Below are positions 5,948 to 17,123 of a DNA stretch of 64,000 bases, piece after piece. Numbering within the stretch: the first letter of the stretch is position 1; each line of letters opens with the position of its first letter. The position numbers and the translations under genes were made by a program. This DNA is from Gammaproteobacteria bacterium (GTDB taxonomy: Bacteria > Pseudomonadota > Gammaproteobacteria > Steroidobacterales > Steroidobacteraceae), in NCBI GenBank assembly GCA_947469285.1, contig CANIOW010000004.1:1-64000 (forward strand), written 5' to 3'. The notes below the pieces were generated by a model. It was not told the origin of the DNA. It did no database searches and was given only the letters and a program-made list of their open reading frames with translations.

Positions 5948-6901
5948 ATGACCGCCACCACGACCCGCCCACCCATGGCAGCAGACGCGCGGCAAATGAT
6001 CGACCTGCTGAAAGAACTGGGTTTCCCAGCCATGGAGACACTGCCGCCCGCGGACACGCGAGCCATCATGGCGCAGATGCCGCGCGCACGGGCGCGTGAA
6101 CTGGCCGCGGTCGAGAACACCACGCTACCCGGCCCGGCTGGAGAGATCCCAGTGCGGCTGTATCGGCCACGGGCGTTCAACGCCGCTGCGCCTTGCCTGC
6201 TGTTCCTGCACGGTGGCGGCTGGGTGGTCTGCACCCTCGATACTTACGACGCGTTCTGCAGTGAACTTGCAGTCGCCGGCGATTGCGTGGTCATTTCGGT
6301 GGACTACCGCCTGGCGCCAGAACACGCCTACCCAGCAGCCATCGACGATGCTGTCGCCGCTTTCAACGGCGTGGTGGCGCACGCGGAGCGCCTGGGAATT
6401 GACCCACGACGCATTGCGGTGGGCGGCGACAGTGCCGGCGGCAATCTGGCTGCGGCTCTGTGCTTGCGTACCCGCGCCGCGGGCGGCGTGCAGCCCTGCT
6501 TGCAGCTACTGTATTACCCCGTCGTGGACGCAGTGGGCCAGTGGCCTTCTTATGCCGAGAACGCCACCGGGTGTTTTCTCACGCAAGTCACCATGGAATG
6601 GTGTTGGCACCAGTACGCGGGCCAGACGTCTGCGCCCTGGCCTGAAGATCTGGCGCCACTCCAGGCCACCAGCCACGCAAACCTGCCGGCCGCGCTGGTG
6701 GTCACCGCCGGTTACGACCTGCTACGCGACGAGGGCAACGCCTACGCGCAGCGCCTGCTGGCTGCCGGTGTACCGACCGTACTGCGCCAGTATCCAGCGC
6801 AGATTCATGGCTTTTTGATGCAAGGCGCCGATGCCGCTGACTGCATCGCTGCGAGCGGTGTGGAACTGCGCCGCGCGTTCGAGCCCTTGCTCATCGCCTA
6901 A
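5948..6901 (+). CDS. Alpha/beta hydrolase, HSL-type esterase
   Basis: This 317-residue carboxylesterase belongs to the hormone-sensitive-lipase group. The oxyanion-hole motif HGGGW is at residues 88-92 and the nucleophile elbow GDSAGGN has Ser162. Asp257 (GYDLLRDEG) and His287 (QIHGF) complete the triad. DYRLAPEHAYPAAIDD is the usual group signature. It would hydrolyse short acyl esters in the cytosol; there is no signal peptide. The ATG at 5948 has AAGGA eight bases upstream. The lipase-CHAT gene begins 71 bases downstream on the same strand, so the two may form one transcription unit. Confidence 0.92.
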   Translation: MTATTTRPPMAADARQMIDLLKELGFPAMETLPPADTRAIMAQMPRARARELAAVENTTLPGPAGEIPVRLYRPRAFNAAAPCLLFLHGGGWVVCTLDTYDAFCSELAVAGDCVVISVDYRLAPEHAYPAAIDDAVAAFNGVVAHAERLGIDPRRIAVGGDSAGGNLAAALCLRTRAAGGVQPCLQLLYYPVVDAVGQWPSYAENATGCFLTQVTMEWCWHQYAGQTSAPWPEDLAPLQATSHANLPAALVVTAGYDLLRDEGNAYAQRLLAAGVPTVLRQYPAQIHGFLMQGADAADCIAASGVELRRAFEPLLIA

Positions 6902-6971
6902 GCGGTGCTCGTTGGGGGCCTGAACCCACGCCTTGCGTGCCGCGGCCTACCCTCGCTGGCGGAGGGCAGGG

Positions 6972-9707
6972 ATGGCCAACAAACGTTTCACACGCAAGCC
7001 CTCACGGTCAGCCATCCGTGGTGCCGCGGGTTGCGCCACGGAAGAGGCCTTCGTCCGGCACCTGCGGCGGCCCACGCGCGAGGCCACACGACACTGGGCG
7101 GACGTGCTCGGCGAACCGCTCTATGCAGAATTACAGGCACTGACTCTCGCCAGCGGACGCTTGCCGCGCCTGCCGGCCAGCAGCGCACGCGTGCTCATTC
7201 TGCCGGGGCTGATGGGCAGCTCGCTGCGGCATCCGGAACGCGGACTGCTGTGGTTCAATCCAGCGGCCATTCTGGCTGGTGAACTGCCCGCGCTGTCCTT
7301 GCCCGAGGCCAAGGCCTGTGCCGCCGAAAGCGTGCTGCCGTTCGTGTATTTTCGCCTACGCTGGCGGCTGCGTGCGGCTGGCTTTCGCGTCGACTACTGG
7401 CCCTACGACTGGCGTCAGGCGCCGCGGCTCACCGCGCAACGGCTGCTGGCCGACCTGCGCGCCGCCGCACTCACGACACCCACCTTGCTGGTAGCGCACA
7501 GTTTCGGCGGACTGGTGGCCGCCCACGCGCTGCAAGCCGACACTGGCCCCGCGCCAGTCCTCGGCCGAGTGGTGACACTGGGTACGCCCTTTGCGGGAAC
7601 CCCGGCGGCGCGCGCAGCATTGTCGGGAGCCGCGCCACTGCTGCGGCGCTTGGCCTGGCTCGACTGGCAGCACACCGCACCCGAACTAGCGAGTAGCCCC
7701 TTGTCCACCTGGCCGGGGCTGCAGGTCTTGTGTCCAGAGGGCGATGCCGCTTTAAGCCTCGGCCGCACCCACGCCGACCCGCGCCTCGCCTGCATCATCG
7801 CCAGGAACGATGGCACGGTACCGCTGGCCAGCGCAGCACAGCCCGCCGCCGTGGGCGTCCCCGTCGCTACCGTGCGCGGTTCTCACGGCCTACTGCCTTC
7901 GCTACCGCATGTTGCCGCGGTCGCTATGGACTTTTTACGCCATGGGCAACTGGGGCCACCGCGAACGGACCTACCGCAGCCCACCGACGCATCGCTCACC
8001 GACGGAAGCTCCGCGGTGACGCCACTACCCGTGGCCGCTCGCTGGCACTCACTGCCGCGAGCAGCACAATGGCGGTTTCTCGCCGAGTGGGTTGCGCCCA
8101 TTGCCGGACCACCACCCGCCGTGTCGCCCGTCGACTGGCCCGTCGACTGGCACGTCGCCTGTGGCGACATCACCCAGACGCGCGCGGATCTGATCATCCT
8201 TGGCGTGTCTCGACACGTGGTCCCCGCCGGACCGCTGCGCGCCCTCAAAGCCGTCGACCGCGTGCGTGAGATGATCGCCCACGGCTTGTACACACCGCTG
8301 GCCGGGCAGGTGTTCTGCATGCCGCCGGCGCGCTCCGGGCACCCGGCGGTGTTGCTGACCGGGCTGGGCGACTTCGATCGGCTCACGCCGCAGGTGCTCG
8401 AAGCGGCCATGCACCAAGCCTTGCAGCTAGCCGCCACCCTCGGCGCCAAACACGTAGCCACCGTGCTGCTCGGCACCGCCTCCGGCATCACGCCGGCCCG
8501 TGCCTTGCGCGCGCAGCAACGCGCCATTCTCGCCTGCCCAACACCACCACGGTGCGTGACCTGGATCACCCGCCGACCGGCGCGAGCCGCCTGGCTGCGG
8601 CGCCAATTGGGCCTGCCCACCGCGCCAGAGGCCACGGATAAACCGCGCCGTGGCAGCGCAGCACTGCCAGCCTATCTGTGGGTGCGGCAGGAAACCGTCG
8701 CCCGTCGCACCTTACTGCGAATGACCTTGCTCACCGACCGTGCCAAAGCCGCCCTGCCCACCGGTAGCGTGAGCTTCGACAGCAAGCTGCAAGCACGCAT
8801 CCTGGCCCCGTTAGCGCGCGAGAGCAGCCCCAACGGCATCGACACCGCCGGCAAAGCGCTGGCCGAAGCACTCCCGCCGCCAGTGCGCGCCGCCTTGATG
8901 GCACTCGGCGAGACGCCCGTGGTGGTGGTCCACGATGTTAATGCCAGCCGCTGGCCATGGGAGACGCTACATGTGGGCGGCGCCACTCCTCGCCCCGCGC
9001 TGCAGGCCGGGCTCGCCCGCCATTTGGAAGCGGAGGCGCTAGACACCGCACGTTGGCTGACCGCGCGCCCCGCGACCCTGCCTTGCCAAGTGTTGTTGGT
9101 GATCAACCCCACCCAAGATCTTCCCGGCGCAGAAGCCGAAGGGCAACAATTACAGACACTGTGGGCCGCCGACCCACGCGTGACGCTGACGGTACTGGCC
9201 GGGCGCGAAGCCACGCGTTCCCACGTACTGGCCGCCTTGAGCACTGGCCGACACGAGCTGGTGCACTACGCCGGACATGCCATGTTCGATGCATTGGACC
9301 CGCCTGCCAGCGGCTTGCTGTGTGCCCGCGGCGAACGCTTACGTGGCGCGGATGTGGCGGCCCTACCCACGCCACCCCGTTTGCTGTTCGCCAACGCCTG
9401 CGAGAGTGGGCGCATACGCCGCGCACCAGCGAGCCACACCGTTGCACACCAACGTGCTGTGGCGGCCACCGGTCTTGCCGAAGCCTTTTTGCGAGCGGGC
9501 ATCGGCCACTACCTGGGCACGTGGTGGCCCGTGTCCGACGGCCCAGCAGCCACATTTGCGGTGGCCTTCCATCGTGCCCTACTGGCCGGCGCTGCCTGTG
9601 GCCCCGCAGTGCTCGCCGCGCGCCGCGCCGTTCACGACACCGGCAGCGCCGACTGGGCGGATTTCATGCACTACGGTGATCCCGGCGCCGCCGTGTTCGG
9701 TGACTGA
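6972..9707 (+). CDS. LCAT-like lipase / macro-like / CHAT protease fusion
   Basis: A 911-residue protein with three recognisable parts. Residues ~70-325 form an LCAT/PGAP1-like alpha/beta hydrolase: ILPGLMGSSLRHP, the YDWR signature, VAHSFGG with nucleophile Ser177, ARNDGTVP with the probable acid Asp280, and GSHGLLP with the probable His305. Residues ~387-530 (ACGDITQTRADLIILGVS to LLGTASGITPARAL) resemble the macro-like fold at the N-terminus of M17 aminopeptidases; this assignment is tentative. The C-terminal ~300 residues form a CHAT (caspase-like) protease with catalytic His769 in HYAGHAMF and Cys810 in FANACESG. CHAT proteases are separase/caspase relatives used in bacterial regulated death and defence. 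The ATG at 6972 has GGAGGG just upstream; a TTG at 6933 is in frame. There is no signal peptide or transmembrane segment. Confidence 0.85.
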   Translation: MANKRFTRKPSRSAIRGAAGCATEEAFVRHLRRPTREATRHWADVLGEPLYAELQALTLASGRLPRLPASSARVLILPGLMGSSLRHPERGLLWFNPAAILAGELPALSLPEAKACAAESVLPFVYFRLRWRLRAAGFRVDYWPYDWRQAPRLTAQRLLADLRAAALTTPTLLVAHSFGGLVAAHALQADTGPAPVLGRVVTLGTPFAGTPAARAALSGAAPLLRRLAWLDWQHTAPELASSPLSTWPGLQVLCPEGDAALSLGRTHADPRLACIIARNDGTVPLASAAQPAAVGVPVATVRGSHGLLPSLPHVAAVAMDFLRHGQLGPPRTDLPQPTDASLTDGSSAVTPLPVAARWHSLPRAAQWRFLAEWVAPIAGPPPAVSPVDWPVDWHVACGDITQTRADLIILGVSRHVVPAGPLRALKAVDRVREMIAHGLYTPLAGQVFCMPPARSGHPAVLLTGLGDFDRLTPQVLEAAMHQALQLAATLGAKHVATVLLGTASGITPARALRAQQRAILACPTPPRCVTWITRRPARAAWLRRQLGLPTAPEATDKPRRGSAALPAYLWVRQETVARRTLLRMTLLTDRAKAALPTGSVSFDSKLQARILAPLARESSPNGIDTAGKALAEALPPPVRAALMALGETPVVVVHDVNASRWPWETLHVGGATPRPALQAGLARHLEAEALDTARWLTARPATLPCQVLLVINPTQDLPGAEAEGQQLQTLWAADPRVTLTVLAGREATRSHVLAALSTGRHELVHYAGHAMFDALDPPASGLLCARGERLRGADVAALPTPPRLLFANACESGRIRRAPASHTVAHQRAVAATGLAEAFLRAGIGHYLGTWWPVSDGPAATFAVAFHRALLAGAACGPAVLAARRAVHDTGSADWADFMHYGDPGAAVFGD
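8127..8150. repeat. Two 12-bp direct repeats in the lipase-CHAT linker
   Basis: CCCGTCGACTGG occurs twice in tandem and encodes P-V-D-W repeats in the linker between the lipase and macro-like parts. A third, degraded copy follows. Confidence 0.6.
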
Positions 9708-9799
9708 ACCGCAAGCGCCAGCGCACGCAACGCTGTGCCTTGACGAGCCGTAGCCGCACAGGCACCGTGCAGCACACCGACTGCACGACACCCACCGCC

Positions 9800-10468
9800 A
9801 TGCCGCACGCCCTGTTCACTACCTACCCCACACTGCGCTTTGCCGCGCTTGGCGTAGCCACCAGCCGCTCGCAGCTGCAGCTGCAGCCGTATGGCATGAG
9901 CACCACGTTTTTGGATGCCGCCACTGAACCGGCGTGGGTCGAGCGCTACCACGCGGTGAACCGCGCGCGCTTCAGTGGACCTTTGGCGCTGCCCGGGTGG
10001 GTGCTGGCCGACTTATACCTGCTGCCGTCGGCCATTGGGCTGATCCTCGACGGCGAAGCGATCGTGGCGGCGTACTACGCTGCGCCCTCGCTGGAGCCCG
10101 GCACCGTCGTGGGTGTTTCACTGCTGAGCACGCGCGAGGGTTTGGGCGCGGGCTATGCGGTGAAGGCACTCACCCTGGCCATGTACCGCGCCCGGGTCCA
10201 GCGCGGCGTCACCCAATGGCAGAGCCGCGCACTGCGCGTGCACACCCGTTTCGGCGCACTGGAGGTGGAAGGTCCGGCACCCGCAGTCCATGGCGCTGCC
10301 GACGACAGCTTCGTCTACCGGGTAGCCTTAGACGGCGCGCCCCAGCCGCCGGGCGAGCCGGTGCCCATCGCCACCGTCAAAGCGCGCGTGGCTGCCGGCG
10401 AGCGGGTCCGCATTGTCGCGCCCGGGCTGACCCCTGGCGGCGATGCGCTCATGCTGGCCGTCCACTAA
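9800..10468 (+). CDS. Unrecognised protein next to the lipase-CHAT gene
   Basis: I do not recognise this family. The predicted protein has 222 residues from the ATG at 9800; a TTG at 9740 is in frame. It begins with MPHALFTTYPTLRFAALG and has no signal peptide or obvious membrane segment. The stretch REGLGAGYAVKALTLAMYRA followed by a strand-rich region is vaguely like an acyltransferase cofactor loop, but I cannot support GNAT membership. It follows the lipase-CHAT gene by about 90 bases in the same direction and ends just before a strong terminator. It is therefore the last gene of that block and may be its substrate, partner or immunity factor; that is inference. Confidence 0.6.
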   Translation: MPHALFTTYPTLRFAALGVATSRSQLQLQPYGMSTTFLDAATEPAWVERYHAVNRARFSGPLALPGWVLADLYLLPSAIGLILDGEAIVAAYYAAPSLEPGTVVGVSLLSTREGLGAGYAVKALTLAMYRARVQRGVTQWQSRALRVHTRFGALEVEGPAPAVHGAADDSFVYRVALDGAPQPPGEPVPIATVKARVAAGERVRIVAPGLTPGGDALMLAVH

Positions 10469-11430: not shown

Positions 11431-12336
11431 TCAGAACACCACCCGGAGCAACGTGAAGTCGTCTGGCAGCGCCGCCGGGCCACTGTAGCTCTTGATCCAG
11501 TCAAAGATACGCTGCGGCTCGTCGCCGCCGGGAGCTGCGGCAAAAGCGACAAAATCCGCAAACTCCAGCGGTTGACCGGGGGTCGTTTCCACCTCGTAGG
11601 TGCCATCGCTGAGGACTAACAGTCGGTCACCCGGCTCGACAGGCGTGACTACCGACTGGTAGCGAACGCCGGGGATGACGCCCATCGCGACACCGGGCGT
11701 GGACAACTGCTGCACTTCAGCGGTCCCGTCGGAGCGCCGACGAATCAACAACGACGGGGGATGACCACCACTCGAGTAATTCAACGTCTGCGTCGACTTC
11801 CGGTACACGCCGTACCAGATGGTGAAGTACATATCGCTCTGTTTTTCCATCGGGAATGTGTCGTTCAAAGCCCCAAGGACGGCCGCAGGATCGCGGAAAT
11901 CCGTGCTGACCAGCGCCGAGGAACGCAACACATTGATGACCGTCACCGACAACAGCGCTGCGCCCACGCCATGACCACAGACATCCAGCAGGTAGAACGC
12001 GATATGGTCGTCGTCGAGCTCGTGAAAACCGAAGCTGTCCCCACCCAGTTCCGTCGACGGCACAAAGTGCCAGTCCGTCACCGGGGTATCCACGCGGCGG
12101 ATCGGCAAAATCCCCATGATGTAATTGACGGCTTCGGCCAGCTCTTCGTTCAGTCGGTTCTGAATCACTTGCAGCAGAATATTACTTTCCGCCAACTGGT
12201 CTTCGACTGCTTCTCCATGCTCAATGGTGCCGTCATAAAGCATCTGCAGATCGTCAAGATCGGCCCGCAGCCGCAGAATCTCGGCATGAGCGGCAGCGAT
12301 ATCCGCAGGCAGTTCCGGAATGGTCGAAACAGTCAT
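11431..12336 (-). CDS. PP2C-type (SpoIIE/RsbU) phosphatase, soluble
   Basis: The 301-residue protein has an N-terminal coiled coil (about residues 15-70, with AHAEILRLRADLDDLQMLYD) and a SpoIIE-type PP2C phosphatase domain. Motifs include STELGGDSFGF, LLDVCGHGVGAALLS, YSSGGHPPSLL and LLVLSDGTYEVE, which carry the aspartates of the metal centre. Such enzymes dephosphorylate STAS-domain proteins in partner-switching pathways. It is divergent from the STAS-methyltransferase operon and probably acts on a STAS protein of this locus. No sensory domain is visible. The ATG at 12336 follows GGGGAC at good spacing; a longer frame to 12372 exists. Confidence 0.85.
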   Translation of the reverse strand: MTVSTIPELPADIAAAHAEILRLRADLDDLQMLYDGTIEHGEAVEDQLAESNILLQVIQNRLNEELAEAVNYIMGILPIRRVDTPVTDWHFVPSTELGGDSFGFHELDDDHIAFYLLDVCGHGVGAALLSVTVINVLRSSALVSTDFRDPAAVLGALNDTFPMEKQSDMYFTIWYGVYRKSTQTLNYSSGGHPPSLLIRRRSDGTAEVQQLSTPGVAMGVIPGVRYQSVVTPVEPGDRLLVLSDGTYEVETTPGQPLEFADFVAFAAAPGGDEPQRIFDWIKSYSGPAALPDDFTLLRVVF

Positions 12337-12467
12337 AAAGTGTCCCCGCGCAAGATTTAATGCATCCCGCATTTAGTAATTGAGAGTAGCATCCACGGCT
12401 TGCATTGTGTCCACTGATCAAACTGGCCGCCACCAAAGCCCTTAAAACCCCCATCCAGAGGTTTGCA

Positions 12468-12977
12468 ATGCAGCCCGTAAATCATGAAGCCCCTGCAGGT
12501 CGAGTACTCGACATTGCCATGGCCACCCATCTGTTCGCGTCCGATTGGGCCTACTGCGATCAAATGGCAACCTACGCGGCAGCGCTGGTTAGCCAGCGCC
12601 GCGCCGACTCGCTCCGCTATGCAAATCTTTTTTCATCCGTCTTAAACGAGTTGCTAGAAACCGTGTTTCGGCAGCACCACCCTCATGGTGAGATCGCCTG
12701 CCGCATTTTTCGCGGCGAACCGCACGACCGTATCGAACTCACTATCCCCTGCGATGCGTCGACCCGGGCGTTCTACGAGTCCGCCATGGTGGACGCTAGC
12801 AGCCCGGATGTCGCCGAAAAGTATCTTTCTTCGCTACTGGACAACGCCATCTCCGACCCCAGAATCGGCCTGCTGGAACTGGCGGCGGACTATCGCGCGC
12901 AGCTGTCGCTGGTGGAAAATGCCGGCGACACACTGACGCTGGTCGTCGACATCATCATTGACGATTCCGCCATCTGA
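12468..12977 (+). CDS. slr1658-like (DUF6272-like) ATPase-fold protein, degenerate
   Basis: 169 residues. The fold resembles that of the protein at 16569-17123, which looks like an slr1658-superfamily regulator with a histidine-kinase-like ATPase fold. An N-box-like NELLE sits at residues 60-64. Where the other protein has GGSGLGILTMMNDYG, this one has DPRIGLLELAADYRA, so the glycine-rich ATP-lid motif is lost. It is likely a binding protein (anti-STAS partner) with little or no kinase activity; that is inference. The ATG at 12468 has AGAGG upstream. It is followed 18 bases later by the STAS-methyltransferase gene and is probably cotranscribed with it. Confidence 0.62.
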   Translation: MQPVNHEAPAGRVLDIAMATHLFASDWAYCDQMATYAAALVSQRRADSLRYANLFSSVLNELLETVFRQHHPHGEIACRIFRGEPHDRIELTIPCDASTRAFYESAMVDASSPDVAEKYLSSLLDNAISDPRIGLLELAADYRAQLSLVENAGDTLTLVVDIIIDDSAI

Positions 12978-12995
12978 CCCCCCATAACCAAACCC

Positions 12996-14165
12996 ATGCA
13001 ATCCACCATGTCCTATACCGCCCGCTTCGATGAAAACAACCAAGAAATTGTTCTTGCTGGCTCCATTCGCCCGAAAGGCGCCGACGAACTCGCGGAGCTG
13101 CGCAAGACGTTTGATCGGGCAATTCAGGCGACCCGCGGGACGCTCTACCTGAATGCCAAACGGTTAGTGCAACTGAACAATGCTGGCTTTCAGGAGATCA
13201 CCAATTTCGTGAAATCGGCGGGTCTGCAAAAGCCGAACCTCAAGATCACCGTCATTACCTCGAGCTATGTTGGCTGGTCACTACGCAAGTTTTCGCTGCT
13301 GCAGAAAATCGGCAGCAATGTCACGGTGGAACAGTACGACAAAGACTTCTATCCGGGCCAGTCGGTGCTTGAGGACTCCGGCTTTATCCCTATCTTGCGG
13401 ACGCAGACCAAGATGACCTGGCGCCACGAACGCGACCTGTTGCCGCGCCATGGCTTGAAACCGGCCATGGCGGTGGCGGACATCTGCTGCGGCATCGGTG
13501 ACTTCGCCGCCCTCGTCTACAAGGAATTCCAACCGTCCCGCCTGCTGGCCATCGACCATTCCAAGCCGAGTCTGGCCTATGCGCGCAAGGTGGCCAGTGA
13601 CTTTCATATCGAGGGCATCGAATATGTCCACGGTGATGCTGCCAATCTGCTGGTGGAGGACAATGAGTTCGACTTTGTCACCTGCCGGCACTCCCTGCAG
13701 GTGTTCGACCGGCCGGAACTCATCCTCAAAGAACTGTTTCGTATCTGCAAGCCTGGCGGCCGCGTTTACATCACTAACGAGAAAAACTCCCACTGCCTGG
13801 GGGAACCGCGTGCCGACAGCATCCAATGGACTTACAACGAAGTAGCCCGCCTCTGGGCGCACTTCAAGATGGACATCGAGCTTGGGCCGAAAAGCCGGCG
13901 CTTTTTGCTGGACGCGGGCTTTGATGATGTGCAAGTCGAAAGCTTCATGGTCACCAACCGCGACGGCGACCCGCAAGATTTCGCTGATGTTATCGCTTCC
14001 TGGGAAGACGTCTACGCCGGGCAGATGGCCGTGCAGCGTGGCGACACCGCTGAGTTCATAGCGCGCTTCCGCCAAGGCTTTCAAGACCATATTTCCGCCG
14101 CGTTGCACCCCAAGGGCTATGCTGGCTGGCCGATATGGGCCGCGTCGGCACGTAAGCCTCGTTAG
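12996..14165 (+). CDS. STAS-domain / SAM-dependent methyltransferase fusion
   Basis: 389 residues. Residues 1-120 align with the slr1659-type STAS protein encoded at 17146-17484 (LVQLNNAGFQEITNF against LEFLNSSGINLFAKF). The phospho-acceptor Ser position is Asn62/Ala63 here. Residues 140-389 form a class I methyltransferase: motif I ADICCGIGD (161-169), acidic LAIDHSKPS, HGDAANLL, and FRICKPGGRVYITNE. It would methylate an unknown small molecule or protein when the STAS part docks to, or is released from, its partner. It sits between the degenerate ATPase-fold gene and the membrane PP2C gene, all on one strand with short gaps. A second ATG lies at 13008. Confidence 0.85.
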   Translation: MQSTMSYTARFDENNQEIVLAGSIRPKGADELAELRKTFDRAIQATRGTLYLNAKRLVQLNNAGFQEITNFVKSAGLQKPNLKITVITSSYVGWSLRKFSLLQKIGSNVTVEQYDKDFYPGQSVLEDSGFIPILRTQTKMTWRHERDLLPRHGLKPAMAVADICCGIGDFAALVYKEFQPSRLLAIDHSKPSLAYARKVASDFHIEGIEYVHGDAANLLVEDNEFDFVTCRHSLQVFDRPELILKELFRICKPGGRVYITNEKNSHCLGEPRADSIQWTYNEVARLWAHFKMDIELGPKSRRFLLDAGFDDVQVESFMVTNRDGDPQDFADVIASWEDVYAGQMAVQRGDTAEFIARFRQGFQDHISAALHPKGYAGWPIWAASARKPR

Positions 14166-14191
14166 TCAAAAAAAACAGGGGACTGACCTTC

Positions 14192-16564
14192 ATGCTTTCA
14201 ATTAGCGCCATCCGAAAACTCCTCAAACCGAAAAGTTTCCGCGGGAAGTTCATCCTGACCGTAGGCACCGTCGTGTTGGCCAGCCTGCTGTTTTCGGGCG
14301 GCTTCGCCTTGCGCAACGTGCATCGACTCGCAAGCGACGCGACCCTCGAGATCCAAAAGGGCCTGACCCGGGCAACCACCGAATACCTCACCAATTACGT
14401 CGACACGACGTCGTTGCGAGTTGACTCGCTGATTAACGGCACCCACTCAGAAGTGACCACCCTGGCCGACGCTATGCAGTCGCTTATCGACCGACCGCAA
14501 GCAGCTGTCGCCGTGGGCGGCGCACTGGCCAGCGACACCCAGTTCAATCCGGCGCTGCAATACGACGTCCACGGCCATTGGGCCCAAAACCGTAGCGGCG
14601 CACCCTCGGTGTTGAGCGTCTGGGGATACCTGCTCGGCGCCGACAAAAAACCGCGCCCGGAGGTGCAAAAGCTCATCCGGGATACCGCGGTTTTCGATTT
14701 TCTGAGTACTAGCCTGATGGCAGGCGGCTCACAGAAGCTGCAGGTGTATTACGTCGGCCCGAAAGACCAGCCGATCATGCGCACCACGCCGTACGCGGAC
14801 CAGGCGCAGATGTTTGACAAGCTCTATCCTGGCCACAACGACGCCAACTTCTGGCAGTTCTTTTATCCGGGCGTCTACGAGGGCTGGCAGCGCTGGATCA
14901 AGGATCCGCAATCGGCGCCGGTTCAGTCCGATAAAGTGACCGAGACCGCGCCTTACGTCGACGCCATTACCGGCAAGCTAATCGTCAGCTATTTCCACCC
15001 GCTGTGGACCAAAGACCGCAAAGACGTGGCCGGCATGACGGCCGCGGATGTGACCCTCGAACAACTCGCCGGCGTTGTTGAAAGTGTCAAAGTGGCTGAC
15101 ACCGGCTTCGCTTTTCTGGCGTCGGAAAGCGGCAACGTCATGGCAGTGCGGCCTGAGGGCGAAAAAACGCTCGGGCTACAGACCGCCAATGCAGGAGCCG
15201 GCCAGGGTGTCACCGGGGTAGACCGGACGCTGATCAAGAGCAACCAAGCCGCCATTCGCACACTGAAAATACCGAGCGGCAACGAGACCGACATTGCGCA
15301 CATCAACTTGGTGCACAACGGCGCGAAAGTACCCTATATCGTTGCCATGCGCAGACTGGGCAAGCGCAACCTGTGGGACGGCAAGATCATCGTCGGCAGC
15401 CAGTTGGTCATCGGCTTCATGGTGCCCGAATCCGAGGTGTACGCATCGTTGTTCGCCGCCCGTAGGTCGGTCGACAATACGCTCCAGCAAATTGTGCGCG
15501 GACAGGCGATCTCCGTCGTCCTGAGCTTGCTGGCCTTGCTGGGCGTTATTTTGGCTATCTCGAAACCCATTTCTGCCGGCTTGAACGAGCTGGCGGTGGC
15601 AGCGCGGCGCCTGAAAGACAAGGATTATTCAGTCCGCATTGAAAAGCCTTCCGATGACGAGGTAGGGGAAGTCGGCTTGGCGTTCAATAGCATGGCCACG
15701 GATATTCGCTACCACACAGAGAACCTTGAGCATCTGGTCAGTGAACGGACCAAAGAACTGGAGACCGCGGCCGACACCATTCTCCTGCTGAATGCGCGGC
15801 TTAACGAGGAAAATGTACGGCTCGGCTCCGAAGTAGATGTGGCCCGCCGCATGCAGATGATGGTGCTGCCGAAGCGCATCGAACTGGATGCCGTCAAGCA
15901 ACTCGACATCGCAGCATTCATGGAGCCTGCTGACGAAGTGGGCGGCGACTACTACGACGTGCTGCAGGCGGGAAACTACGTCAAGGTAGGCATTGGCGAC
16001 GTCACTGGCCACGGCCTGGAAAGCGGCGTGCTGATGCTGATGGTGCAGTCTGTGGCCAGAGCCTTGGAAGAACGCGGCGCAACCGACCCAGAGATGTTCC
16101 TGAGCGTACTGAACCGCGTCATCTACAAGAACATTGAGCGCACCGAGTCGAACAAGTCACTGACGCTGGCCTTCGCCGACTTCCGCGACAATGGCGAGGT
16201 CATGCTCTCCGGCCAGCATGAAGAAGTCCTCATCGTGCGCAACAATGGCACCATTGAACGCATCGACACCAATGATCTCGGCTTCCCGATCGGTCTTGAA
16301 GCAGATATCTCGCCGTTCGTCGCCGTCCACACGCTGACACTTGCCCCTAACGATGTGATGATTCTGCATACGGACGGGGTGACCGAAGCGGAAAACCCAC
16401 TCGGCCAGCTGTACGGCATGGAACGCCTGTGCGAAAGCGCCCAGCGGCATAGTGAAAAAGATGCAACCGCGATCAAGAATGGCATCATCAGCGATCTTAT
16501 GCAGTTTATCGATAACCAGAAAATACATGACGACATTACCATCGTCGTTCTGAAGCAGAGATAA
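14192..16564 (+). CDS. Membrane sensor phosphatase: Cache-HAMP-PP2C (SiaA-like)
   Basis: A 790-residue sensor. It has a transmembrane helix near residues 22-44, a large extracytoplasmic double-Cache-like region (~50-415), a second transmembrane helix (~427-455, VVLSLLALLGVILAI), a HAMP domain, a coiled coil with HLVSERTKELETAADTILLL, and a C-terminal SpoIIE/PP2C phosphatase. Phosphatase motifs are EPADEVGGDYYDVL, IGDVTGHGLESGVLML and LHTDGVTEAENP. This is the layout of SiaA-type partner-switching phosphatases, which dephosphorylate a STAS protein in response to an external signal. The ligand is unknown. The two genes that follow (4- and 22-base gaps) encode the matching ATPase-fold and STAS proteins. 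Confidence 0.9.
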   Translation: MLSISAIRKLLKPKSFRGKFILTVGTVVLASLLFSGGFALRNVHRLASDATLEIQKGLTRATTEYLTNYVDTTSLRVDSLINGTHSEVTTLADAMQSLIDRPQAAVAVGGALASDTQFNPALQYDVHGHWAQNRSGAPSVLSVWGYLLGADKKPRPEVQKLIRDTAVFDFLSTSLMAGGSQKLQVYYVGPKDQPIMRTTPYADQAQMFDKLYPGHNDANFWQFFYPGVYEGWQRWIKDPQSAPVQSDKVTETAPYVDAITGKLIVSYFHPLWTKDRKDVAGMTAADVTLEQLAGVVESVKVADTGFAFLASESGNVMAVRPEGEKTLGLQTANAGAGQGVTGVDRTLIKSNQAAIRTLKIPSGNETDIAHINLVHNGAKVPYIVAMRRLGKRNLWDGKIIVGSQLVIGFMVPESEVYASLFAARRSVDNTLQQIVRGQAISVVLSLLALLGVILAISKPISAGLNELAVAARRLKDKDYSVRIEKPSDDEVGEVGLAFNSMATDIRYHTENLEHLVSERTKELETAADTILLLNARLNEENVRLGSEVDVARRMQMMVLPKRIELDAVKQLDIAAFMEPADEVGGDYYDVLQAGNYVKVGIGDVTGHGLESGVLMLMVQSVARALEERGATDPEMFLSVLNRVIYKNIERTESNKSLTLAFADFRDNGEVMLSGQHEEVLIVRNNGTIERIDTNDLGFPIGLEADISPFVAVHTLTLAPNDVMILHTDGVTEAENPLGQLYGMERLCESAQRHSEKDATAIKNGIISDLMQFIDNQKIHDDITIVVLKQR

Positions 16565-16568
16565 GGCC

Positions 16569-17123
16569 ATGCAATCGCATTACGGTATCGAGTTCCCTGA
16601 AGCTGCTGACAGCACTGAGGGAGTCAAGCTGGCCTTGCATAGCGGGCTGCCACCGACCTGGTCCAATTGCGGCGCAACGGCTGATTTCCTTGGCAACCTG
16701 TATGCGCGGGCGGCAGCCCGCGCCGGGAAAAATGTCAAAGAGACCCGTCACGGCATCAATTACCTGGCCAACGAAATTCTGGAGAATGCGGTCAAGTTTC
16801 GGCACCCGGCCAGCGGCGCCATCGAGATTGAAGCCCGCTTCCAGCAAGGTCGTTTCGAGCTGCAAGTACGCAACTATGCGGAACCTGCGGTGGCAGCTAA
16901 TTTCCAGACACTGCTGCAAGAACTGACCTCACGCGACCCTGGCGAATTGATGATCGAGCGGATCGAAGCAAACGCAATGGATGACACGCAGGGCGGCTCA
17001 GGCCTCGGCATCCTGACCATGATGAATGACTATGGCGCTGAGATTGGCTGGCGCTTTACGCAAACGCAGGATGGCGAGCCGGTTCAAGTCGACACCTACT
17101 TAACCGTCCAATTAGTTCAATAA
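16569..17123 (+). CDS. slr1658-superfamily regulator (DUF6272), HATPase fold
   Basis: 184 residues with a histidine-kinase-like ATPase fold. The N-box is NEILEN at residues 68-73 and the G-box is GGSGLG at 142-147. Strands FELQVRNYAE and the C-terminal VDTYLTVQL complete the domain. It resembles SiaB-type kinases and slr1658 proteins and probably phosphorylates or binds the STAS protein encoded 22 bases downstream, opposing the membrane PP2C encoded 4 bases upstream. The ATG at 16569 follows AAGG closely. The retained N- and G-boxes contrast with the eroded paralogue-like gene at 12468. Confidence 0.8.
   Translation: MQSHYGIEFPEAADSTEGVKLALHSGLPPTWSNCGATADFLGNLYARAAARAGKNVKETRHGINYLANEILENAVKFRHPASGAIEIEARFQQGRFELQVRNYAEPAVAANFQTLLQELTSRDPGELMIERIEANAMDDTQGGSGLGILTMMNDYGAEIGWRFTQTQDGEPVQVDTYLTVQLVQ

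What the first reader, a model, noticed from the sequence alone, without database searches (positions are those of the whole stretch)
6972..9707. Lipase, macro-like domain and CHAT protease in one protein
The protein joins an LCAT/PGAP1-like hydrolase (Ser177, Asp280, His305), a middle domain like the N-terminal fold of M17 aminopeptidases, and a CHAT protease with His769 and Cys810. All catalytic motifs look intact. A protease that could be released or activated by a signal, tied to a lipase that could damage membranes, fits a self-killing or defence role. Alternatives are a lipid-processing enzyme regulated by its own protease part. The order of domains is seen; the function is inference.
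Basis: partly seen in the sequence, partly recalled or inferred. Interest (0 to 1): 0.85.

Follow-up and report, generated by a model that had tools for sequence, protein, structure and literature searches.

The report
Lipase with a detachable protease tail
One bacterial protein joins a phospholipase-like enzyme to a macro-fold domain and an intact CHAT (caspase-like) protease; relatives have repeatedly dropped the protease end but kept the lipase end at the same chromosomal spot, so the protease looks like an optional control module rather than the trigger of a toxin that cannot do without it.

Summary
Window 6972-9707(+) encodes a 911-residue protein with an LCAT/lysosomal-PLA2-like hydrolase (Ser177/Asp280/His305), a macro-fold domain of the M17 aminopeptidase N-terminal type, and a CHAT protease (His769/Cys810). 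Structure prediction and profile searches support all three parts. In 23 aligned full-length homologues the five catalytic residues are invariant; in the wider set His and Cys are present in 40 of 40 readable CHAT domains.

In the window's family (probably Steroidobacteraceae) the gene is chromosomal and vertically inherited, often behind a LysR gene, with no recognisable defence island and no phage or viral copies. Stand-alone hydrolases ending where the inter-domain linker would begin occur throughout the tree and, in two cases, in the same gene order as fused versions. Hydrolase and tail histories agree (Mantel r 0.95): probably one old fusion with repeated tail loss. A hydrolase that persists without its protease is unlikely to be a toxin needing it. 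Remote relatives (TIR-SLOG-CHAT, DUF7379-hydrolase-CHAT-TPR-S, a Rhizobium copy beside SIR2-pYEATS) keep a conflict role possible.

Best reading: a cytoplasmic acyl-hydrolase controlled by a ligand-sensing M17N-CHAT tail. Architecture is near certain; function is inference.

The parts
6961..6966 (+). GGAGGG ribosome-binding-like site, 5 bases before the ATG
   Evidence: sequence read directly
6972..9707 (+). whole gene, 911 aa, hydrolase - M17N-like - CHAT
7089..7961 (+). LCAT/lysosomal-PLA2-like alpha/beta hydrolase (residues about 40-330)
   Evidence: family profile A5 vs PDB; AF2 pLDDT 87 and fold search best hit lysosomal PLA2 4x92/4x90
7500..7502 (+). Ser177 codon, nucleophile in AHSFGG
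   Evidence: invariant in A1; Ser-Asp-His in 72 of 74 hydrolases surveyed
7809..7811 (+). Asp280 codon (NDGTV)
7884..7886 (+). His305 codon (GSHG)
8037..8099 (+). closing helix of the hydrolase (residues 356-376); stand-alone relatives end soon after the equivalent point
   Evidence: linker/tail comparison
8136..8651 (+). M17 aminopeptidase N-terminal-like, macro-fold domain (residues 389-560); no M17 catalytic domain
   Evidence: profile A3 vs PDB E 9e-7; PF02789 in 19/23 homologues; fold match 2dx6
8670..9704 (+). CHAT protease region (residues 567-911; Pfam core 626-903)
   Evidence: PF12770 E 1.9e-28; fold search Craspase/Csx29, separase, SAVED-CHAT
9276..9278 (+). His769 codon (AGHA), CHAT dyad
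   Evidence: invariant
9399..9401 (+). Cys810 codon (NACES), CHAT dyad
   Evidence: invariant
5948..6901 (+). upstream co-directional Abhydrolase_3 (hormone-sensitive-lipase-type) gene, 70 bp before; possibly co-transcribed here, not seen next to the gene in the two same-genus relatives

Best explanation
A cytoplasmic acyl-hydrolase of the LCAT/lysosomal-PLA2 type whose activity is governed by a C-terminal control module: a macro-fold M17N-like domain that most likely senses a small ligand or partner, coupled to an active CHAT cysteine protease. On sensing, the protease most likely cuts the flexible, poorly conserved linker behind the hydrolase (around residues 330-389) or a partner protein, freeing or re-setting the hydrolase, which acts on phospholipid or another acyl ester. 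Shown: the three domains, intact catalytic residues, purifying selection on all three, one shared history of hydrolase and tail, presence and absence of the tail at the same locus. Inferred: ligand sensing, cutting of the linker, lipid substrate, and a stress or lipid-homeostasis role rather than a dedicated suicide role.
For: Domains and catalytic residues. All three domains under purifying selection in close pairs; CHAT is the lowest or tied-lowest in most pairs, w about 0.06-0.22. Hydrolase and M17N-CHAT trees agree in their main groups and distances correlate, Mantel r 0.95, 0/2000 permutations, so the tail was inherited with the hydrolase. Stand-alone forms are not one clade (p-AU 1.2e-37; 7 changes, at least 4 forced by starred branches) and end where the linker would begin. 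L169 (stand-alone) has the same gene order as L057/L058 (fused), and L069/L072/L171 share downstream genes with L049/L151. LysR gene on the same strand upstream of both forms, within 30 bp or slightly overlapping in 11 loci. No signal-peptide-like hydrophobic stretch at the N-terminus.
Against: No biochemical test. No conserved cleavage site is visible in the linker. The Asp of the macro-like GDI motif in this protein is not conserved in the family, so ADP-ribose binding cannot be assumed. pTM of the whole model is 0.47, so domain-domain contacts are not resolved. The CHAT part could act only on another protein. Remote relatives look like conflict proteins.
Confidence: 0.42

Rival explanations
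1. Single-gene abortive-infection or self-killing effector: the M17N-like domain senses an infection signal, CHAT is activated and releases the phospholipase, which damages the membrane.
For: CHAT is a known executioner fold in defence (Craspase and SAVED-CHAT are fold matches). Kaur et al. 2020 (PMC7159879) report that caspase-superfamily domains in VMAP conflict systems always come with a neighbouring alpha/beta-hydrolase gene. Relatives: TIR-SLOG-CHAT L061; DUF7379-hydrolase-CHAT-TPR-S giants; R. leguminosarum copy next to a SIR2-pYEATS gene. A macro domain is the nucleotide sensor of TM-macro Thoeris effectors (PMC11204291).
Against: Vertical inheritance in conserved chromosomal contexts, often with a LysR regulator; no defence operon among the window neighbours scanned; no phage or viral copies; hydrolase repeatedly kept without the protease.
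Confidence: 0.3
2. Two enzymes in one chain with separate jobs: the hydrolase does ordinary lipid or ester turnover; the M17N-CHAT tail cleaves another cellular protein (as Csx29 or SAVED-CHAT do) and uses the hydrolase only as anchor.
For: The hydrolase occurs alone in many relatives; M17N-CHAT exists without the hydrolase in L060 (643 aa, complete) and probably L150.
Against: Hydrolase-CHAT fusion is retained for long times with both parts under strong constraint; the hydrolase is also fused to a different protease, Trypsin_2, in L004, which suggests that hydrolase and protease belong together.
Confidence: 0.2
3. The reading frame or the fusion is an artefact (frameshift, annotation or assembly chimera).
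For: None found; the window lies in a draft assembly of 53 contigs.
Against: The same order of domains at 32 loci including same-genus genomes G001 and G002, no internal stops, coding constraint throughout.
Confidence: 0.01

Closest known systems
CHAT proteases: TPR-CHAT (Csx29) of Craspase, SAVED-CHAT (8tl0)
   Same: CHAT fold and His-Cys dyad; another, probably sensing, domain placed before the protease
   Different: no TPR or SAVED domain, no CRISPR or CBASS genes among the neighbours scanned; a hydrolase is fused in the same chain; the sensor position is taken by an M17N-like macro-fold domain
Lysosomal phospholipase A2 (PLA2G15) / LCAT family, PF02450
   Same: best structural match and strong profile match; Ser-Asp-His; PGxMGS loop
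   Different: about 15% identity; no secretion signal seen; cap segment shortened in the window genus (33-50 residues where relatives have 82-85); followed by M17N-CHAT
M17 leucyl aminopeptidase N-terminal domain (PF02789; macro clan per PMC6500376)
   Same: sequence and fold homology
   Different: the M17 metallopeptidase catalytic domain is absent; the domain precedes a cysteine protease instead
VMAP/MoxR-vWA ternary conflict systems (Kaur et al. 2020, PMC7159879)
   Same: pairing of an alpha/beta-hydrolase with a caspase-superfamily protease
   Different: one fused chain instead of neighbouring genes; no MoxR or vWA gene nearby; vertical, single-gene inheritance
TM-macro ThsA of Thoeris (PMC11204291)
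   Same: macro-fold domain attached to a membrane-directed effector
   Different: M17N-type, not the ADP-ribose-reader macro type; protease and lipase instead of TM helices; no TIR gene among the neighbours scanned

Membership tests
CHAT proteases (PF12770) | profile score above the curated cut-off | tested here: met
   100.2 bits vs 24; 23/23 homologues
CHAT proteases (PF12770) | His-Cys catalytic dyad | tested here: met
   His769/Cys810; HC in 40 of 40 readable domains
CHAT proteases (PF12770) | caspase-like/separase-like fold | tested here: met
   Foldseek: Craspase TPR-CHAT, separase, SAVED-CHAT
CHAT proteases (PF12770) | proteolytic activity | not testable with these tools
   needs an enzyme assay
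LCAT / lysosomal PLA2 family (PF02450) | profile score above the curated cut-off | tested here: inconclusive
   window protein 19.0 bits vs 21; R. leguminosarum homologue 29.1; 23/23 at E<=0.01
LCAT / lysosomal PLA2 family (PF02450) | alpha/beta-hydrolase fold closest to PLA2G15/LCAT with Ser-Asp-His | tested here: met
   top hits 4x92/4x90/4x95; triad
LCAT / lysosomal PLA2 family (PF02450) | phospholipase or acyltransferase activity | not testable with these tools
   needs an enzyme assay
M17 aminopeptidase N-terminal domain (PF02789) | sequence match | tested here: met
   19/23 homologues; profile vs PDB aminopeptidases 9e-7; the window protein alone does not score
M17 aminopeptidases (whole enzyme) | M17 metallopeptidase catalytic domain | tested here: not met
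   no such Pfam match in the protein
ADP-ribose-binding macro domains (PF01661) | Pfam Macro match and conserved adenine-contacting Asp | tested here: not met
   no PF01661 hit; GDI Asp not conserved in A1; fold similar
SAVED-CHAT / CBASS or type III CRISPR effectors | SAVED domain and cyclase or Cas10 gene nearby | tested here: not met
   PADLOC SAVED_CHAT matches only residues 816-902 of the CHAT part; no such genes among the scanned window neighbours
VMAP/MoxR-vWA ternary systems | MoxR AAA+ and vWA genes adjacent | tested here: not met
   none among the scanned window neighbours
Anti-phage defence systems in general | defence-island context or carriage on mobile elements | tested here: not met
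   exception: R. leguminosarum plasmid copy beside SIR2-pYEATS
Anti-phage defence systems in general | protection against phage | not testable with these tools
   needs a phage challenge experiment

The most novel reading that the evidence does not exclude
An M17N-type macro-fold domain is a previously unrecognised sensor that switches on CHAT proteases, the counterpart of SAVED in SAVED-CHAT, and forms a portable M17N-CHAT control cassette attached to different effectors (phospholipase here, TIR-SLOG in L061) and lost when control is no longer needed.
Probability: 0.3. Interest if true: 0.75.

Novelty: new variant of a known kind. Interest (0 to 1): 0.5.

Why it matters
It gives a clean natural experiment on how a caspase-like protease becomes coupled to a lipase: related bacteria carry the same hydrolase at the same chromosomal place with and without the protease. 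That makes direct comparison possible (hydrolase alone, fused, fused with dead protease) and bears on the open question of what the alpha/beta-hydrolase next to caspase-like proteases in bacterial conflict systems does. It also points to a possible new sensor domain for CHAT proteases.

Tried and rejected
NCBIfam gave no match for the protein. PADLOC hits (BovA, SAVED_CHAT) cover only CHAT-region residues and were not taken as membership. The M17N profile in 369 genomes of the class returned mainly ~500-aa ORFs of the size of leucyl aminopeptidases, useful for homology but not for finding more fusions. The CHAT profile in 398 genomes of the phylum found only the window genome and G739 at E<=1e-25: the fused type is rare outside the order. 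An M17N-like domain in L061 is supported (hhalign E 4e-6, probability 87%), in L066 only weakly (probability 27%). L162 was first counted as stand-alone but is a contig-edge fragment whose tail lies on another contig, so it was removed. No remnants of a tail were found behind true stand-alone genes. Viral contigs and phages: none. The pYEATS/TPR-S literature search gave no usable paper.

Full report
What is in the sequence. The gene at 6972-9707(+) starts with ATG 5 bases after GGAGGG and encodes 911 residues. Pfam recognises CHAT at 626-903 (E 1.9e-28). For this protein alone the hydrolase is just under Pfam's cut-off (LCAT 19.0 vs 21 bits), and the middle domain is not seen. With 23 full-length homologues aligned, all members match LCAT/PGAP1 and CHAT and 19 of 23 match Peptidase_M17_N. 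Profiles made from each part find, in solved structures, lysosomal PLA2 and LCAT, cytosol aminopeptidases and a SAVED-CHAT protein. The AF2 model shows three folded blocks separated by low-confidence linkers at 330-353/375-389 and 552-563. Foldseek finds Craspase TPR-CHAT, separase and SAVED-CHAT for the C-terminal part and the macro-fold protein TTHA0132 for the middle; the hydrolase modelled alone (pTM 0.88) matches lysosomal PLA2 best. Ser177, Asp280, His305, His769 and Cys810 are invariant in the 23. In the wider set, Ser-Asp-His is kept in 72 of 74 hydrolases, the two exceptions being remote, and His-Cys in 40 of 40 readable CHAT domains.

Where it comes from. The window is contig C4 of a 3.1-Mb, 53-contig genome. 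One genome of the window's own family (G026) has a contig of the same length and with the same gene as a record titled Steroidobacteraceae (24,811 bases), so the family is probably Steroidobacteraceae. In 148 relatives searched, 77 have a match. In 398 genomes of the phylum, the CHAT profile found only the window and one other at E<=1e-25. No relative was found in phage records or viral contigs. A Rhizobium leguminosarum plasmid carries the same three-domain protein at 35% identity.

The main new result. Besides 32 loci with hydrolase-M17N-CHAT, 29 loci of the same bacterial family encode the hydrolase alone, about 415-570 aa. The stand-alone proteins end soon after the helix K-x-x-W-x-x-L-S-x-x-x-R-R-x-x-L, at the point where the linker of the fused proteins begins. 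They do not form one clade (p-AU 1.2e-37; 7 changes on the tree, at least 4 forced by well-supported branches). L169 (stand-alone, G033) lies in the same gene order on both sides as L057 and, as far as its contig goes, L058 (fused, G013 and G049), and stand-alone L069/L072/L171 share the downstream ferredoxin-oxidoreductase genes with fused L049/L151. No remains of a tail were found behind true stand-alone genes. The hydrolase tree and the M17N-CHAT tree agree in their main groups, and pairwise distances correlate with r 0.95 (0 of 2000 permutations as high; 0.84 among distant pairs). The simplest account is one old fusion followed by several losses of the tail; gain against loss rests on this congruence, not on a rooted count. 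One apparent stand-alone (L162) proved to be a contig-edge fragment and was removed.

Neighbourhood. A LysR-type gene lies on the same strand upstream of both fused and stand-alone forms in about half of the loci, within 30 bp or slightly overlapping in 11 (one cluster at >40% identity, so orthology is likely but not proven; hydrolase starts were taken as the longest ORF). Other neighbours are acyl-CoA dehydrogenase, aldo/keto reductase, NUDIX and 2-hydroxyacid dehydrogenase genes. The window genus differs: in the window an Abhydrolase_3 gene lies 70 bp upstream, but it is not adjacent in G001 and G002, where an EamA transporter gene lies upstream. No defence system was recognised among the scanned window neighbours; a PADLOC mad2 hit is to a generic methyltransferase.

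Selection. In close pairs all three domains are under purifying selection; CHAT is the lowest or tied-lowest in most pairs (w 0.06-0.22). Hydrolases without a tail remain constrained (0.17-0.26). The protease is therefore maintained where it is present.

Wider family. L061 (same order) has TIR, SLOG, a domain with profile similarity to the M17N-like domain (hhalign E 4e-6) and CHAT. L064/L065 and L152-L154 are 1800-2000-aa chains with DUF7379, the hydrolase and CHAT, some with TPR-S. L066 is a split form, DUF7379-hydrolase in one gene and CHAT-TPR-S in the next, overlapping gene. L060 is M17N-CHAT without hydrolase. L004 has the hydrolase fused to Trypsin_2 instead of CHAT. The R. leguminosarum gene neighbours a SIR2-pYEATS gene. 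Hydrolase and protease are thus repeatedly paired, with the protease type interchangeable, as Kaur et al. 2020 (PMC7159879) noted for caspase-superfamily domains and neighbouring alpha/beta-hydrolase genes.

How it most likely works. The pairing and the tail losses fit an acyl-hydrolase under the control of a sensor-protease tail. The sensor is probably the M17N-like domain, because other CHAT proteins carry a sensing domain there and because macro domains can act as nucleotide sensors in defence effectors (PMC11204291); this step is inference. The linker behind the hydrolase is flexible and basic in many members but has no conserved cutting motif; a cut there would yield a fragment like the stand-alone protein, which is suggestive only. 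A hydrolase that persists unaccompanied at the same locus argues against a lethal toxin that needs its protease, so I rank a stress or lipid-control role above self-killing, without excluding it. The CHAT part may also act on another protein.

Novelty. I found no description of the hydrolase-M17N-CHAT architecture in nine searches of open papers; most subscription papers were not searchable. The parts are known kinds; the combination, the M17N-type domain in the sensor position and the repeated absence of the tail are what is new.

Noticed in passing
L004:5929-8451 (Qingshengfaniella alkalisoli plasmid): The same hydrolase fused to a Trypsin_2 protease instead of CHAT: the protease partner has been exchanged.
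   Followed up: partly
L061:4771-8475 (G110): TIR-SLOG(LD_cluster2)-M17N-like-CHAT protein in the same order: the M17N-CHAT tail appears to be attached to a quite different N-terminal part.
   Followed up: partly
L066:4344-7040 and 7001-9703 (G033): Split version: DUF7379-hydrolase gene overlapping a CHAT-TPR-S gene, in the same genome whose other copy (L169) lacks the tail.
   Followed up: partly
L003:10892-12346 (R. leguminosarum plasmid p1): Homologue lies next to a SIR2_2-pYEATS gene with weak ThsA-like PADLOC matches; possible conflict locus.
   Followed up: partly
window 7089-7961: In the window genus the cap segment of the hydrolase is shortened (33-50 residues between conserved points where relatives have 82-85) and the branch is long, suggesting changed substrate or control.
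   Followed up: partly
window 9740-10468: Co-directional ORF of 242 aa 32 bases downstream with no Pfam match.
   Followed up: no
window 11431-17123: Two SpoIIE-type phosphatase genes (11431-12372 and 14192-16564, the latter with HAMP) around a methyltransferase gene and two ORFs without Pfam matches: possible partner-switching signalling cluster of lower G+C.
   Followed up: no
L056, L047, L055, L151, L050, L052, L161, L142, L145, L170, L140: LysR-type regulator gene within 30 bp upstream of (or slightly overlapping) the hydrolase gene, for fused and stand-alone forms alike.
   Followed up: partly
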